This document shows, one piece after another, positions 2,432-6,780 of a stretch of DNA of 6,926 bases. Source of the stretch: Clostridia bacterium BRH_c25 (GTDB lineage: Bacteria > Bacillota_A > Clostridia > Lutisporales > Lutisporaceae); contig LOES01000131.1 of NCBI GenBank assembly GCA_001515955.1, positions 1-6,926 of the forward strand. Direction: 5' to 3'. The notes beneath the pieces are model-generated. The model worked only from the letters and a program-made list of their open reading frames with translations. It did not search any database and was not told the DNA's origin. Position 1 is the stretch's first letter. Each line of letters starts with the position of its first letter. Made by a program: the position numbers and the translations under genes.

Positions 2432-2539
2432 TGTCATTCTGAGCGTAGCGAAGAATCTTATGCCTGTGAGAATAACCTTGACAAATACCTTTGAGTATTC
2501 CCCAAGGGTCTAAGATCCTTCATTGCATTCAGGATGACA
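2432..2539. repeat. MITE-like intergenic inverted repeat, about 108 bp
   Basis: The left arm (2432-2460, starting TGTCATTCTGAGCG) and the reverse complement of the right arm (2511-2539) match at 22 of 29 positions. All seven differences are transitions, and four become G-U wobbles in RNA. The element lies between galU and the mutase and carries no reading frame of its own. I recall very similar TGTCATTCTGAGCG...GAAGAATCT arms scattered between genes in several unrelated anaerobes, but cannot cite a named family. It is probably a non-autonomous mobile element or a dispersed palindromic repeat; no target-site duplication was clear. Confidence 0.7.
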
Positions 2540-2540
2540 T

Positions 2541-2575
2541 GAATCGCGCAACTCGTAACGCGAAACGCGTAACCA
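2541..2575 (-). repeat. Five-unit degenerate heptamer array (GCGTTAC type)
   Basis: Read on the minus strand, five consecutive 7-bp units occur from 2575 to 2541: TGGTTAC, GCGTTTC, GCGTTAC, GAGTTGC, GCGATTC. They abut the right end of the 2432-2539 inverted repeat. The units fit the pattern K-M-G-W-Y-N-C shared by the other heptamer arrays here, except for one G in TGGTTAC, but the dominant version is GCGTTAC. No inverted partner array or AGGGCAA core is present, so it looks like a half element. It ends 28 bases before the ribosome binding site of the next gene. Confidence 0.6.
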
Positions 2576-2617
2576 AGCCTGATAGGAATACCCCAAAATG
2601 ATTACGGAGGTAAATTT

Positions 2618-4312
2618 ATGAGCTATTACGAAAGGTACAACAAATGGATTACTGATGCTGCCTTTGATGAGGAGACCAGGAAGGAACTCATGGCTATCAA
2701 GGGTAATGATAAGGATATAGAGGATAGGTTTTACAAGGATCTGGAGTTCGGAACCGGCGGCCTTAGAGGTGTAATCGGAGCCGGCACCAACAGGATGAAC
2801 AAGTATACAGTCGGCAGAGCGACACAGGGTCTGGCCAATTACATCATAAAAAAAAGGCTGGAAAACCCCAGTGTTGTAATTGCTTATGATTCCAGGCGCT
2901 TTTCCTATGAATTCGCCATAGAGGCGGCAAGGGTGCTGAATTCCAATGGGATTATCGCATATGTATTCAATGAGCTTAGACCCACACCGGAGCTTTCCTT
3001 TGCAGTCAGGGAGCTGAGAGCAACAGCAGGGATCGTTATTACAGCAAGCCACAATCCGCCCCAATATAATGGCTACAAGGTTTATTGGAGCGACGGAGGG
3101 CAGGTGGTTTCACCCATTGCTGAGGAGCTTATTGCAGAAGCGAATTCCATACAGGATTTTTCTGAAATAAAGTGCATGGATGAATGCTATATAAGCAATA
3201 AAGGATTGCTGCGATTTTTGGGTAAAGAGATGGATGACAGGTATATCGGCAAGGTCAGGGGTCTGGCACTTAATTCCGATGTGGTGAAGGAAGTGGGAGA
3301 TGACTTTGGAATTATATATACACCTTTGCATGGAGCGGGTAACATTCCTGTCAGGAGGGCTTTAAAGGAGACCGGTTTTAACAATGTGACGGTAGTGCCG
3401 GAGCAGGAGTTGCCGGACCAGGACTTTCGTACTGTAAAATTCCCTAATCCTGAGGAGCATGAGGCTTTTACTCTCGCTATTGAGCTTGCCGGGAAGCAGT
3501 CTGCAGATATAATAATCGGAACTGACCCCGACTGTGACAGGGTGGGGGTTGTAGTGAAGAACACCCAGGGTGAATATGTGGTCCTCACAGGGAATCAGAC
3601 AGGAGCATTGCTTGTTGACTATATATTGGGTTCCATGCAGAAGCAGGGCAGATTGAATGAGAGAAGCACTATAATAAACACCATAGTAACAGGCAAGCTG
3701 GGGGCGAAAATAGCAGAAAGCTATAATGTGGGGACGATATCTGTACTTACAGGTTTCAAATATATTGCAGAGAAGATAAAAGAATTTGAAAATACCGGGA
3801 GAGAATTCATATTCGGCTATGAAGAAAGCTATGGATATCTTGCAGGAACCTTTGTAAGAGACAAGGATGCAGTCATTACATCCATGCTTATATGCGAGAT
3901 GGCTGCCTGCTACAAGAAAAAAGGAATGACACTGTACGAAGGGCTTATGAACCTCTATAGCAAATACGGATATTACAAGGAGAGTCTTAGCTCCATTACT
4001 TTCAAAGGTAAGGAAGGCATGGAGGAAATGGTCAGGCTTATAGATGGATTAAGAAGCAATCCGCCCGGGGAGGTCAACGGTATTAAAGTGACAGAAGTAA
4101 GGGACTATTTGGATTATAACGGTACGATAACACTTCCGAAGGAAAACGTACTTCAATTTATACTGGAGGACAAATCCTGGTTTTGCATAAGACCTTCAGG
4201 AACTGAACCGAAGCTGAAGATATATTTTTCCGTAACAGGGGAAAGCAATGATGCTGCCGAAGCAAGAATGGCAGGGCTTAGAGCTGGGGTAGAGGTATAT
4301 GTGGAAGTTTAA
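2618..4312 (+). CDS. pgcA: Alpha-phosphoglucomutase / phosphohexomutase, PgcA type
   Basis: This 564-residue cytoplasmic enzyme interconverts glucose 6-phosphate and glucose 1-phosphate, possibly also mannose phosphates, through a phosphoserine. It feeds the upstream galU. The four signature loops of the alpha-D-phosphohexomutase superfamily are in order: active-site TASHNPPQYNGYK (142-154, phosphoserine S144), metal-binding DPDCDRVG (303-310, D303/D305/D307), sugar-binding GYEESYGY (400-407), and phosphate-binding RPSGTEPK (525-532). The N-terminal LEFGTGGLRG (42-51) and GAGTNRMN (54-61) are typical of the longer Bacillus PgcA/YhxB branch rather than the shorter GlmM or ManB branches, and the length agrees. 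GGAGG (2606-2610) lies 7 bases before the ATG. No damage is seen. Exact hexose preference cannot be read from the sequence. Confidence 0.95.
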   Translation: MSYYERYNKWITDAAFDEETRKELMAIKGNDKDIEDRFYKDLEFGTGGLRGVIGAGTNRMNKYTVGRATQGLANYIIKKRLENPSVVIAYDSRRFSYEFAIEAARVLNSNGIIAYVFNELRPTPELSFAVRELRATAGIVITASHNPPQYNGYKVYWSDGGQVVSPIAEELIAEANSIQDFSEIKCMDECYISNKGLLRFLGKEMDDRYIGKVRGLALNSDVVKEVGDDFGIIYTPLHGAGNIPVRRALKETGFNNVTVVPEQELPDQDFRTVKFPNPEEHEAFTLAIELAGKQSADIIIGTDPDCDRVGVVVKNTQGEYVVLTGNQTGALLVDYILGSMQKQGRLNERSTIINTIVTGKLGAKIAESYNVGTISVLTGFKYIAEKIKEFENTGREFIFGYEESYGYLAGTFVRDKDAVITSMLICEMAACYKKKGMTLYEGLMNLYSKYGYYKESLSSITFKGKEGMEEMVRLIDGLRSNPPGEVNGIKVTEVRDYLDYNGTITLPKENVLQFILEDKSWFCIRPSGTEPKLKIYFSVTGESNDAAEARMAGLRAGVEVYVEV

Positions 4313-4847: not shown

Positions 4848-4870
4848 GCACATGGCACGTAGCACGTGCC
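4848..4870 (-). repeat. Three-unit heptamer array with a perfect 7-bp hairpin
   Basis: On the minus strand the heptamers CACGTGC, TACGTGC and CATGTGC run in tandem from 4868 to 4848. The same bases contain a perfect hairpin, GGCACGT (4854-4860) and ACGTGCC (4864-4870), with an AGC loop. A CCGAAGC follows at 4870-4876, recalling the CGAAGC in the core of the larger elements. It sits between the response regulator and kal, 23 bases before the kal ribosome binding site. No T-run follows, so it is not a classic terminator. Confidence 0.5.
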
Positions 4871-4905: not shown

Positions 4906-5289
4906 ATGGATAAAGTAATTATAAGGCTGAGAATGAGTGCACATGATGCGCATTACGGAGGGAATCTGGTGGACGGAGCAAGGATGCTGGGACTTTTCGG
5001 AGATGTTGCAACAGAGCTTCTTATAAGAAATGACGGAGATGAAGGACTGTTTTGTGCTTATGACAATGTTGAGTTTCTTGCACCGGTATTTGCCGGAGAC
5101 TACATCGAAGCTGTGGGCGAAATTACAAAGATGGGAAACACATCAAGAAAAATGCAGTTTGAAGCCAGAAAGGTGATACAGGCAAGAACCGACATTAATG
5201 ATTCAGCGGCAGAAGTACTGGAAACACCAATTGCAGTATGCAGAGCAAGCGGCACCTGCGTAGTACCAAAAGACAAGCAGCGGCTGTAG
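4906..5289 (+). CDS. kal: 3-aminobutyryl-CoA ammonia-lyase
   Basis: The 127-residue protein matches the Kal family in length and sequence. It removes ammonia from L-3-aminobutyryl-CoA to give crotonyl-CoA, a late step of lysine fermentation to butyrate and acetate. It has a single hotdog-fold pattern: a short first strand, [17 protein letters not shown] (residues 12-28) leading into the central helix, then [19 protein letters not shown] (55-73), the strand-turn-strand typical of hotdog CoA enzymes. H13, H16, D23 and E56 are candidate catalytic or substrate-contact residues by position only. GGGAGG (4893-4898) lies 7 bases before the ATG. Its neighbour kce makes its substrate, which strengthens the call. 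The stop codon sits in the loop of a 10-bp hairpin. Other hotdog CoA enzymes are the main alternative. Confidence 0.88.
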
Positions 5290-5298
5290 CCGCTGCTT
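5275..5298 (+). other. Perfect 10-bp hairpin enclosing the kal stop codon
   Basis: AAGCAGCGGC (5275-5284) and GCCGCTGCTT (5289-5298) pair perfectly around a TGTA loop. The TAG stop (5287-5289) spans the loop and the first stem base. Only TTAGATAC follows, with no U-run, so it is not a standard rho-independent terminator. Its last two bases overlap the first bases of the fold-back element. It may protect the kal 3' end or affect termination; the effect is unknown. Confidence 0.6.
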
Positions 5299-5394
5299 AG
5301 ATACGAGATACGAGATGCTAGATGCGAGGATTAGGGCAAGGCTTCGAAGCATTGCTTGCACTCTCGAATCTCGGATCTAGAATCTCGCATCTAA
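5297..5394. repeat. Heptamer fold-back element A (KAGATNC arms around an AGGGCAA core)
   Basis: The left arm is a run of 7-bp units from 5298: TAGATAC, GAGATAC, GAGATGC, TAGATGC, GAGGATT. The core AGGGCAAGGCTTCGAAGC (5333-5350) then ATTGCTTGC folds on itself: GCAA-GCTTCGAAGC-TTGC pairs with one mismatch. The right arm, read on the minus strand from 5393, gives TAGATGC, GAGATTC, TAGATCC, GAGATTC and the partial GAGAGTG. The whole therefore folds back, and the 7-bp period would allow several registers. It fills the kal-kce gap and ends just before the kce ribosome binding site. No coding potential was seen. Confidence 0.75.
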
Positions 5395-5415
5395 AATTAA
5401 GGGAGGATTTTTTTC

Positions 5416-6231
5416 GTGGATAAATTAATCATAACAGCGTGTCTTACGGGAGCGGAAGTGACAAGGGAGCAGCAGCCCAATCTTCCCATCAGTCCCGATG
5501 AAATAGCTGAAGCAGCATATCAGGCATGGAAAGCCGGTGCTTCAATAGTGCATATCCATGCCAGGAAGGCTGACGGTACTCCGACTCAGGATATTGAGGT
5601 ATATAGGGAGATCAAAGAGAAGATTGCAAAAAAATGCGATATAATATTTCAACCTTCAACAGGGGGAGCGGTATGGCACTCCAAGGAAGAAAGGATACAG
5701 CCTGTACACCTGAAGCCCGAAATGGCTTCCCTGAGCACAGGCACATGCAATTTTGGTCCGGATGTGTTCATGAATTCAGAAGAGTATATTGAGACCTTCG
5801 CAAAAGCTATGCAGGAAAATGGTGTAAAGCCGGAGATTGAAGTATTTGAAAAGGGTATGATCAACAATGCATTGAAGCTGGTCAAAAAAGGACTTCTTAC
5901 AATGCCAATACATTTTGACTTTGTTTTGGGTGTTCCCGGAGCAATGCCGGGGGAGCCAAGGGACCTTATGTACCTTGTAGACAGCATTCCTGCCGGCTGC
6001 ACCTGGACGGTGGCAGGCATAGGAAGGGCGGAGCTTCCTCTTGCAGTGATGGCAATAGTAATGGGAGGACATGTAAGGGTAGGCTTTGAAGATAATATAT
6101 TCTATTCAAAGGGTGTAGTTGCAGAGTCTAATGCTCAATTGGTAGAAAGAATTGCAAGGATAGCAAAGGAATGCGGCAGAGAAGTGGCAATACCGGATGA
6201 AGCAAGGAAGATACTGAATGTTAGTCGCTAG
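5416..6231 (+). CDS. kce: 3-keto-5-aminohexanoate cleavage enzyme (BKACE family)
   Basis: The 271-residue protein belongs to the beta-keto acid cleavage enzyme family (formerly DUF849), TIM-barrel zinc enzymes. Kce condenses 3-keto-5-aminohexanoate with acetyl-CoA, giving 3-aminobutyryl-CoA and acetoacetate. Visible hallmarks are VHIHAR (45-50) with zinc ligands H46 and H48, QPSTGG (79-84), SLSTGTCNFG (105-114), IEVFEKGM (141-148), HFDFVLGVPG (166-175) and HVRVGFEDN (219-227), whose E225 is the likely third zinc ligand and R221/D226 likely catalytic. E14 is present; I recall an acidic residue there helping to bind the substrate amine. The start is GTG, 8 bases after GGGAGGA (5401-5407). Adjacent kal favours true Kce over another BKACE specificity. 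The last codons and the stop lie inside a heptamer repeat. No other lysine-pathway genes (kamA, kamDE, kdd) are in the window. Confidence 0.92.
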   Translation: MDKLIITACLTGAEVTREQQPNLPISPDEIAEAAYQAWKAGASIVHIHARKADGTPTQDIEVYREIKEKIAKKCDIIFQPSTGGAVWHSKEERIQPVHLKPEMASLSTGTCNFGPDVFMNSEEYIETFAKAMQENGVKPEIEVFEKGMINNALKLVKKGLLTMPIHFDFVLGVPGAMPGEPRDLMYLVDSIPAGCTWTVAGIGRAELPLAVMAIVMGGHVRVGFEDNIFYSKGVVAESNAQLVERIARIAKECGREVAIPDEARKILNVSR

Positions 6232-6319
6232 ATACTAGTCGCTAGTCTCTAGTTTTAGGGCAAAGCCTGCGAAGCCTTGCCCAAATCTAGCGACTCGTGA
6301 CTCGTGACTAGTGACTAAC
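6221..6319. repeat. Heptamer fold-back element B (KAGTCRC arms around an AGGGCAA core)
   Basis: The left-arm units from 6222 are TAGTCGC, TAGATAC, TAGTCGC, TAGTCTC, TAGTTTT. The core (6257-6282) starts AGGGCAAAGCCTGCGAAGCC and is nearly palindromic, opening GGGCAA and closing TTGCCC. The right arm, read on the minus strand from 6317, gives TAGTCAC, TAGTCAC, GAGTCAC, GAGTCGC, TAGATTT. It has the same plan and core as element A, but the heptamer is AGTC-based rather than AGAT-based, except for one TAGATAC in the left arm and the TAGATTT next to the core in the right arm. It overlaps the kce 3' end, supplying codons S270, R271 and the TAG stop, and abuts the hairpin at 6318. Confidence 0.75.
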
Positions 6320-6353
6320 GAAAATCATTTAGATATTTCTAAAGGATTTTCGT
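6318..6353. terminator. Strong AT-rich hairpin after kce, probable terminator
   Basis: Bases 6318-6333 and 6338-6353 pair at 15 of 16 positions (one A-G mismatch at 6327/6344) around the loop TATT. The outer stem is ACGAAAATC/GATTTTCGT and the inner is TTTAGA/TCTAAA. GTTTTAT follows (6354-6360), a short broken T-run, and A-rich bases begin the other side, so it could act in both directions. It probably ends the kal-kce transcript. An operator dyad for the downstream gene is a less likely alternative. Confidence 0.55.
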
Positions 6354-6405
6354 GTTTTATGTAGAAATATAGTTATATGATAATGATACCTGGGGGGGTG
6401 ATATC

Positions 6406-6780
6406 GTGCTTTTCGATACGAATATCAGTGCAGCAGTGAGATGTAAGCATTGCGGCAAACTTGTAATAAAGGACATATCTCTTTTTAACCTTTCTAAGGG
6501 CAGCTTGCATGAGGAAAGATGCAATTGCGGCAATAAGTTATTCAGAATTAAAAGCAGCGATTCAAAGACCTTCTGTCTATATATCAATTGTATTGCCTGT
6601 GACAAGGAACATCTTTACCTGTTTAACTCCAGACAGGTTTTAAGTGAAAAAATGAAAATCCTGGGCTGCCCGAACAGCAGGTTGGACATTGCATTCGTAG
6701 GCAACAGGAAGCTGGTCAGAGAAGTGGCCATTAAGTATCAAAAGGACTTGCAGGAGCTTATAAAAGTGCTTGAGGTGTAA
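6406..6780 (+). CDS. Hypothetical protein with CxxC zinc-ribbon-like motifs
   Basis: I do not recognise this 124-residue protein. It has no signal peptide or membrane segment and is probably cytoplasmic. Cysteine pairs suggest metal binding: C13-x2-C16 in RCKHCGK, C39-x-C41 in RCNCGN, and C62-x2-C65 in NCIACDK, with a further C88. The C-terminal third is a charged helix (about 98-122) and might mediate dimerisation or partner binding. The start is GTG at 6406, set by GGGGG (6394-6398) in a run of seven G followed by TGAT, 7 bases upstream; this resembles GGAGGTGAT with one change. It stands alone between two hairpins, so it is probably a single-gene transcript, but no convincing promoter was found at 6354-6390. 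Codon use and frame look like the neighbours, so it is probably a real gene. Confidence 0.75.
   Translation: MLFDTNISAAVRCKHCGKLVIKDISLFNLSKGSLHEERCNCGNKLFRIKSSDSKTFCLYINCIACDKEHLYLFNSRQVLSEKMKILGCPNSRLDIAFVGNRKLVREVAIKYQKDLQELIKVLEV

What the first reader, a model, noticed from the sequence alone, without database searches (positions are those of the whole stretch)
5297..6319. Two fold-back elements with one architecture, built from different heptamers
Elements A (5297-5394) and B (6221-6319) share length (about 98 bp), plan (direct heptamers, hairpin core, inverted heptamers), the phase of the 7-bp units relative to the core, and the core itself (AGGGCAA-R-GC-Y-T...CGAAGC-N-TTGC). Yet most arm units differ: AGAT-based in A, AGTC-based in B. 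Arms that are largely homogenised within a copy but different between copies imply unit-by-unit expansion or conversion on a conserved core, or a core that recruits arms. Tandem heptamers are known from cyanobacterial STRR repeats, but I know of no inverted, core-centred heptamer family in Clostridia.
Basis: partly seen in the sequence, partly recalled or inferred. Interest (0 to 1): 0.8.

Follow-up and report, generated by a model that had tools for sequence, protein, structure and literature searches.

The report
Fixed-length heptamer fold-backs at gene ends
A small group of uncultured Clostridia carries, in up to dozens of copies per genome, DNA elements of about 98 bases placed just after genes and built, when complete, from four seven-letter repeats on either side of a shared core, and at one such spot a related species has the same core with different repeat letters.

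Summary
A (5297-5394) and B (6221-6319) belong to a real, clade-limited family. A profile of left arm plus core gives 105 distinct elements in 659 kb of fetched DNA and none in shuffled DNA, and matches 8 of 391 sampled genomes of the class. The left arm is close to fixed length: four KAGWYNC heptamers, then a core (KAGATTAGGGCARGGCTTCGAAG) in constant phase. About a quarter have a clear inverted right arm. Elements sit mostly just downstream of stop codons, often supply a TAG stop, and about 3 in 10 abut a short stem-loop. At site A a relative (G020, kce 84.6% identical DNA) has a core and arms of other units beside the same hairpin; at site B it has period-8 repeats without a recognisable core; G001 lacks both. 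Neighbouring units within an arm resemble each other more than chance in several genomes. Unit turnover in place on a conserved core therefore gains support; free slippage growth does not fit the length. Nearest known kind: inverted intergenic heptamers of Xanthomonas. Function and any mobilising enzyme are unknown; TRAP is absent and Y1 transposases show no link. Best reading: REP-like 3'-end palindromes with unit turnover.

The parts
5297..5394 (+). Element A: fold-back of about 98 bp in the kal-kce gap, ends TTAG...CTAA
5298..5325 (+). A left arm: four heptamers TAGATAC GAGATAC GAGATGC TAGATGC
5333..5359 (+). A core AGGGCAAGGCTTCGAAGCATTGCTTGC
5366..5393 (-). A right arm: four inverted heptamers (TAGATGC GAGATTC TAGATCC GAGATTC on the minus strand)
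5275..5298 (+). Hairpin, 10-bp stem and 4-nt loop, abutting A; its left arm is the 3' end of the kal coding region. In G020 one inner base pair differs on both sides (G-C to A-T) and the outermost pair is lost
6221..6319 (-). Element B: fold-back of about 99 bp after kce; scores best read on the minus strand
6222..6249 (+). B arm on the kce side: TAGTCGC TAGATAC TAGTCGC TAGTCTC
6257..6282 (+). B core AGGGCAAAGCCTGCGAAGCCTTGCCC
6290..6317 (-). B arm on the far side, minus strand: TAGTCAC TAGTCAC GAGTCAC GAGTCGC
6318..6353 (-). Hairpin abutting the outer end of B; a like hairpin is at the empty site in L001 (G001) and in G020
6229..6231 (+). kce stop codon TAG, which is the TAG of a B heptamer

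Best explanation
A and B belong to a clade-limited family of REP-like palindromic elements. The complete form is a fold-back of about 98 bp with four heptamers (KAGWYNC) and a half-unit on each side of a conserved core. Elements lie mostly at gene 3' ends, often against a short stem-loop or supplying the gene's TAG stop. Some are kept at the same site between species, and their heptamers turn over arm by arm, probably by short-tract copying between neighbouring units held to a fixed length. In transcripts they would form a long stem with frequent mismatches behind the coding sequence, which I think most likely protects the mRNA 3' end or insulates neighbouring genes, as REP sequences are thought to do (recalled). 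Shown: family, architecture, placement, shared sites, unit differences. Inferred: the copying mechanism, original mobility, the RNA role.
For: 105 distinct elements; 0 shuffled hits. R1 matches in 8 of 391 class genomes. AG in left units 0-3 in 97, 96, 97, 77 of 105, in unit 4 in 15 of 104. Strong right arm in 28 of 104, 0 of 520 shuffled trials. 96 of 105 intergenic; 69 of 94 with the upstream ORF in the same orientation, 30 of those 69 starting within 10 nt of its stop. Stop codon TAG in 24 of 34 ORFs ending next to an element, 91 of 356 other ORFs (Fisher p 2e-7). Site A in G020 has the core centre GGCTTCGAAG and other units. Neighbour similarity: G001 58 of 113 vs 36.8 sd 5.0, G021 43 of 92 vs 32.3 sd 3.9. 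Pairing across arms at W 89 of 124 vs 50.9 sd 8.3.
Against: 76 of 104 lack a strong right arm. Shuffled within genomes, pairing at W is near expectation (80 of 112 vs 71.6 sd 5.3), so pairing may not be what selection sees. 25 of 94 have the upstream ORF in the opposite orientation. No neighbour effect in G016, G018, G019 or G022. In G020 site B has period-8 units and no recognisable core, and neither G020 site reaches the profile cut-off, so replacement by another repeat is possible. Some sites are filled in one species only. No transcription data.
Confidence: 0.45

Rival explanations
1. A non-autonomous mobile element (MITE- or REPIN-like) that settles beside hairpins at gene ends; related species share sites because the target is shared, and unit differences reflect replacement by new copies.
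For: A stem of 9 bp or more ends at offset -1 or 0 of the outer unit in 16 of 103 elements, and one of 7 bp or more within -8 to +5 in 31 of 103; control 0.0002 per position for stems of 8 bp or more. Sites A and B are empty in G001 and the B hairpin is there without the element. Site B in G020 holds a different repeat at the same place.
Against: Y1 transposases occur in 41 of 61 relatives and none of the 20 fetched Y1 stretches, 17 of them from element genomes, has an element. No target duplication seen in the few empty sites read by eye. At two shared sites core and arms align as one inherited copy (sets 2 and 6). Other transposase families were not tested. Some hairpin-bearing rows are copies of one longer G001 repeat.
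Confidence: 0.28
2. Ordinary heptamer microsatellites grown by polymerase slippage that happen to lie in inverted pairs.
For: Heptamers are reported as the most abundant category of such repeats in most genomes (PMC4679880, introduction, citing Mrazek 2007). Neighbouring units are similar in some genomes.
Against: The left arm ends sharply after four units; runs of three or more NAGNNNC number 55, 78, 10 and 3 for 3, 4, 5 and 6 units. The core is conserved in sequence and phase.
Confidence: 0.1
3. A binding site for an RNA- or DNA-binding protein that reads (G/T)AG every seven letters.
For: A, G and C are the constant letters (0.90, 0.96, 0.95). K (mostly G or T) is an unusual degeneracy. A fixed unit number fits an ordered protein.
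Against: TRAP (PF02081), which I recall as a reader of (G/U)AG triplets, is in none of the eight element genomes, though in 10 of 61 relatives. In G020 some arms are GCG or GGG rather than KAG.
Confidence: 0.1
4. Intrinsic transcription terminators.
For: Stem-loops at gene ends; a terminator-like site on the minus strand at 5274-5299, the hairpin beside A.
Against: In 5200-6500 the scan calls neither fold-back a terminator and finds no plus-strand site. The other elements were not scanned.
Confidence: 0.05

Closest known systems
GGGAATC heptamer repeats of Xanthomonas (Rehm et al. 2015, PMC4692102; sections 10-11 read, further passages and the start of the abstract seen)
   Same: Intergenic heptamer arrays nearer to the 5' neighbouring ORF (mean 28 nt), 70 cases in Xcc and 75 in Xac of convergent pairs able to form stem-loops, mostly between the same genes in two species with variable length and sequence.
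   Different: There 2-26 units and no conserved core in what I read; here four units and a conserved core in fixed phase.
TAACTGA repeats of Beggiatoaceae, Cyanobacteria and Bacteroidetes (MacGregor 2015, PMC4679880; abstract and sections 3, 9, 10, 24 read)
   Same: Dispersed intergenic heptamers; occupancy differs between relatives.
   Different: Direct repeats, in the main genome mostly just upstream of start codons, with one indirect repeat; no core.
Cyanobacterial STRR heptamers (PMC2670836, one passage on a hairpin-forming STRR; PMC2858038, one reference entry)
   Same: Short tandem repeats between genes that can form a hairpin.
   Different: No conserved core or fixed length in the passage; different phylum.
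REP / REPIN elements (PMC3116915 and PMC2817692, search listings only; rest recalled)
   Same: Dispersed extragenic palindromes.
   Different: Heptamer arms are not part of them as I recall; no link to Y1/RAYT genes found here.

Membership tests
Inverted intergenic heptamer repeats (Xanthomonas type) | Tandem heptamers in intergenic DNA near the upstream gene | tested here: met
Inverted intergenic heptamer repeats (Xanthomonas type) | Convergent inverted pairs | tested here: met
   28 of 104
Inverted intergenic heptamer repeats (Xanthomonas type) | GGGAATC unit and wide range of unit numbers | tested here: not met
   units KAGWYNC, mostly four
REP/REPIN with RAYT | Dispersed extragenic palindrome | tested here: met
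   palindromic form in 28 of 104
REP/REPIN with RAYT | Element beside a Y1/RAYT gene | tested here: not met
   0 of 20 Y1 stretches, 17 from element genomes
Mobile insertion element | Target-site duplication | tested here: inconclusive
   None seen by eye at a few empty sites
TRAP-bound KAG array | TRAP gene present in the genome | tested here: not met
   0 of 8 element genomes
Known Rfam family | Match to a covariance model | tested here: not met
   none over A or B nor over the elements of six further loci
Intrinsic terminator | Stem followed by a T run | tested here: not met
   window elements A and B only

The most novel reading that the evidence does not exclude
A defined genetic element whose length, core and phase are fixed while its repeat letters are rewritten arm by arm and species by species at the same chromosomal site, with one letter per heptamer tending to stay unpaired so that the fold-back is punctuated every seven bases, and which settles against small stem-loops at gene ends by an unknown single-strand-dependent process.
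Probability: 0.22. Interest if true: 0.8.

Novelty: new variant of a known kind. Interest (0 to 1): 0.57.

Why it matters
Heptamer repeats have been reported as the most abundant class of such repeats in most bacterial genomes examined (PMC4679880 citing Mrazek 2007) and, in the papers I read, have no agreed origin or role. A family with a near-constant unit number, a conserved core and a shared site bearing different units makes the question of how units are rewritten readable from strain comparisons. It also shows that intergenic heptamers can be parts of an ordered element rather than free-running microsatellites.

Tried and rejected
TRAP as reader of KAG. Y1/RAYT transposase as mover. Rfam. 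Viral contigs with an exact core pattern: 0. Plasmids and phages with B only: no match (BLAST's low-complexity filter may hide such sequence). Programmed mismatch at position N: 26 of 124 paired vs 43.3 sd 5.3; still low without G020 and G022 (24 of 96 vs 34.6 sd 4.2), but not significant in window, G001 and G016 alone (8 of 40 vs 10.4 sd 2.2), so only suggestive. A heptamer consensus common to several phyla was thought of and not tested.

Dropped rows and biases: one search merged 108 hits into 105 by identical context; several G001 copies of a longer repeat remain as separate rows and inflate the hairpin count. Most loci were fetched because they bear heptamers, so shared sites are over-represented. 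The profile spans four units, so its counts for units 0-3 are ascertained; the drop at unit 4 is not. It misses diverged members: both G020 copies at the window sites score below its cut-off. One search scored at most 39 candidates per genome and at most 14, so copy numbers are lower bounds. Gene calls were simple open reading frames.

Full report
What was checked. Each folds into a single long hairpin on either strand, with a shared core and the same phase of units to core. Neither matches an Rfam family. The window's genes, by Pfam, are a DUF2298 membrane protein, a nucleotidyl transferase, a phosphoglucomutase, a response regulator, a 4HBT-family protein, a BKACE protein and one protein without a family. 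I call the 4HBT and BKACE genes kal and kce from recalled knowledge of lysine fermentation.

Relatives. No whole genome is held for the window. The kce protein found 49 relatives among genome contigs; the closest, L001 (genome G001), is 92% identical. In a 230 kb sample of G001 heptamer fold-backs appeared, some with other cores. A pattern of two and a half KAGWYNC units matched 14 of 61 relatives; G001 has 24 forward and 21 reverse matches and none with the pattern read backwards. The backward pattern did match in 7 of the 61, none of them G001 or G017-G021.

The family. A sequence profile of left arm plus core was built from 26 elements. It matched 17 of 148 relatives at E up to 0.001: seven (G001, G017-G022) have 6-39 matches, G016 has 6, the other nine 1-3. 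In a sample of 391 genomes of the class it matched 8 at E up to 0.0001, the same eight. In the fetched stretches an ungapped form of it gives 105 distinct elements and nothing in shuffled sequence.

Architecture. From the core outward AG is present in 97, 96, 97 and 77 of 105 at units 0 to 3 and in 15 of 104 at unit 4. Runs of three or more NAGNNNC, counted without reference to the core, number 55, 78, 10 and 3 for 3, 4, 5 and 6 units. Letters over 427 units are G 0.52, T 0.27, C 0.19 at position 1, then A 0.90, G 0.96, W (A 0.57, T 0.37), Y (C 0.60, T 0.38), a free position, and C 0.95. A right arm with at least 10 of 12 required letters is present in 28 of 104, in none of 520 shuffled trials, and in 17 of the 28 it lies 0-3 bases from the palindromic position. 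The letters K, W, Y and N were not used to find right arms. W pairs across arms in 89 of 124 cells against 50.9 sd 8.3; N pairs in 26 of 124 against 43.3 sd 5.3. Shuffled within genomes (28 elements), W is 80 against 71.6 sd 5.3 and N 25 against 36.3 sd 3.6, so the W signal is mostly a difference between lineages.

Placement. 96 of 105 are intergenic by simple ORF calls. Of 94 with an upstream ORF, 69 have it in the same orientation, at a median 17 nt after the stop, and 30 of those 69 start within 10 nt of it. Among ORFs of at least 90 codons, the stop is TAG in 24 of 34 that end next to an element and in 91 of 356 others; in 15 of the 34 the TAG is in phase with the heptamers. The kce stop in the window lies in a heptamer of B. 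A stem of 7 bp or more ends within -8 to +5 of the outer unit in 31 of 103 and one of 9 bp or more at exactly -1 or 0 in 16; the control rate for stems of 8 bp or more is 0.0002 per position. Some of these rows are copies of one longer G001 repeat.

Orthologous sites. Elements lie in the same gap in several pairs of genomes whose aligned flanks are about 74-90% identical. In two pairs core and arms read as one inherited copy (L327 with L363; L316 with L359). Other gaps hold an element in one genome only (L226 against L266 in both directions; L338 against L318 and L370). G020 carries kce at 93% protein identity and 84.6% DNA identity. At site A it has units AGGTGC where the window has AGATRC, starting at the same base after the same hairpin, and the core centre GGCTTCGAAG. 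At site B it has period-8 units (22 of 30 matches against 11 of 30 for period 7) and no recognisable core. Both G020 sites contain a nested short palindrome. The hairpin beside A has one inner base pair changed on both sides between window and G020 and its outermost pair lost; a like hairpin beside B is present in window, G020 and G001. G001 is empty at both sites.

Unit turnover. Neighbouring units share their type more than expected in G001 (58 of 113 vs 36.8 sd 5.0), G021 (43 of 92 vs 32.3 sd 3.9), G020 (26 of 27 vs 21.4 sd 1.1) and the window (6 of 6 vs 2.6 sd 1.2), weakly in G017 (8 of 16 vs 4.6 sd 1.7), and not clearly in G016, G018, G019 or G022. The two arms of one element can differ in type.

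Mechanism. The data favour elements of constrained length whose units are rewritten within an arm. Copying between neighbouring units during replication, with a limit on total length, would do this; replacement by another repeat at the same site cannot be excluded, and the coreless G020 site B speaks for it. No enzyme was found: Y1 transposases are in 41 of 61 relatives, and none of 20 fetched Y1 stretches, 17 of them from element genomes, has an element. TRAP is absent from the eight element genomes.

Prior work. The nearest precedent is the inverted GGGAATC heptamers of Xanthomonas (PMC4692102). My seven paper searches listed no core-centred heptamer family in Clostridia; the library holds openly licensed papers only, so this is not proof of absence.

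Noticed in passing
window 2541-2594: Heptamers of CGCGTAA type followed by GATAGGAATACCCC, like the right end of the G020 element subfamily.
   Followed up: partly
window 2432-2540: A CATTCTGAGCG...AGGATGACA palindromic element directly beside those heptamers; the same kind sits beside heptamer arms in L183, L187 and L018.
   Followed up: partly
window 4848-4870: GCACATG GCACGTA GCACGTG heptamers in the gap before kal, similar to right-arm units of L274.
   Followed up: no
L227 about 2470-3000; also L183, L187, L224, L225, L232, L240, L242, L244: A longer repeat in G001 with a heptamer arm at one end; some contigs end in it, and its ends look like short inverted repeats by eye.
   Followed up: partly
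L266, L274, L334, L398: A GTAGGGGCGAA-type palindrome nested inside heptamer elements.
   Followed up: no
L256:2836-2929: A fold-back with CAGARAA units and a related core, outside the KAGWYNC type.
   Followed up: no
L380, L382, L397 and L385, L387: Long Y1 (RAYT-like) genes flanked by their own short ends (GTGCCAGGCAC or GGGACAGGTACC types).
   Followed up: no
L398 about 2310-2340: Period-8 rather than period-7 units (AGGTTGCG) at the site of element B in G020.
   Followed up: partly
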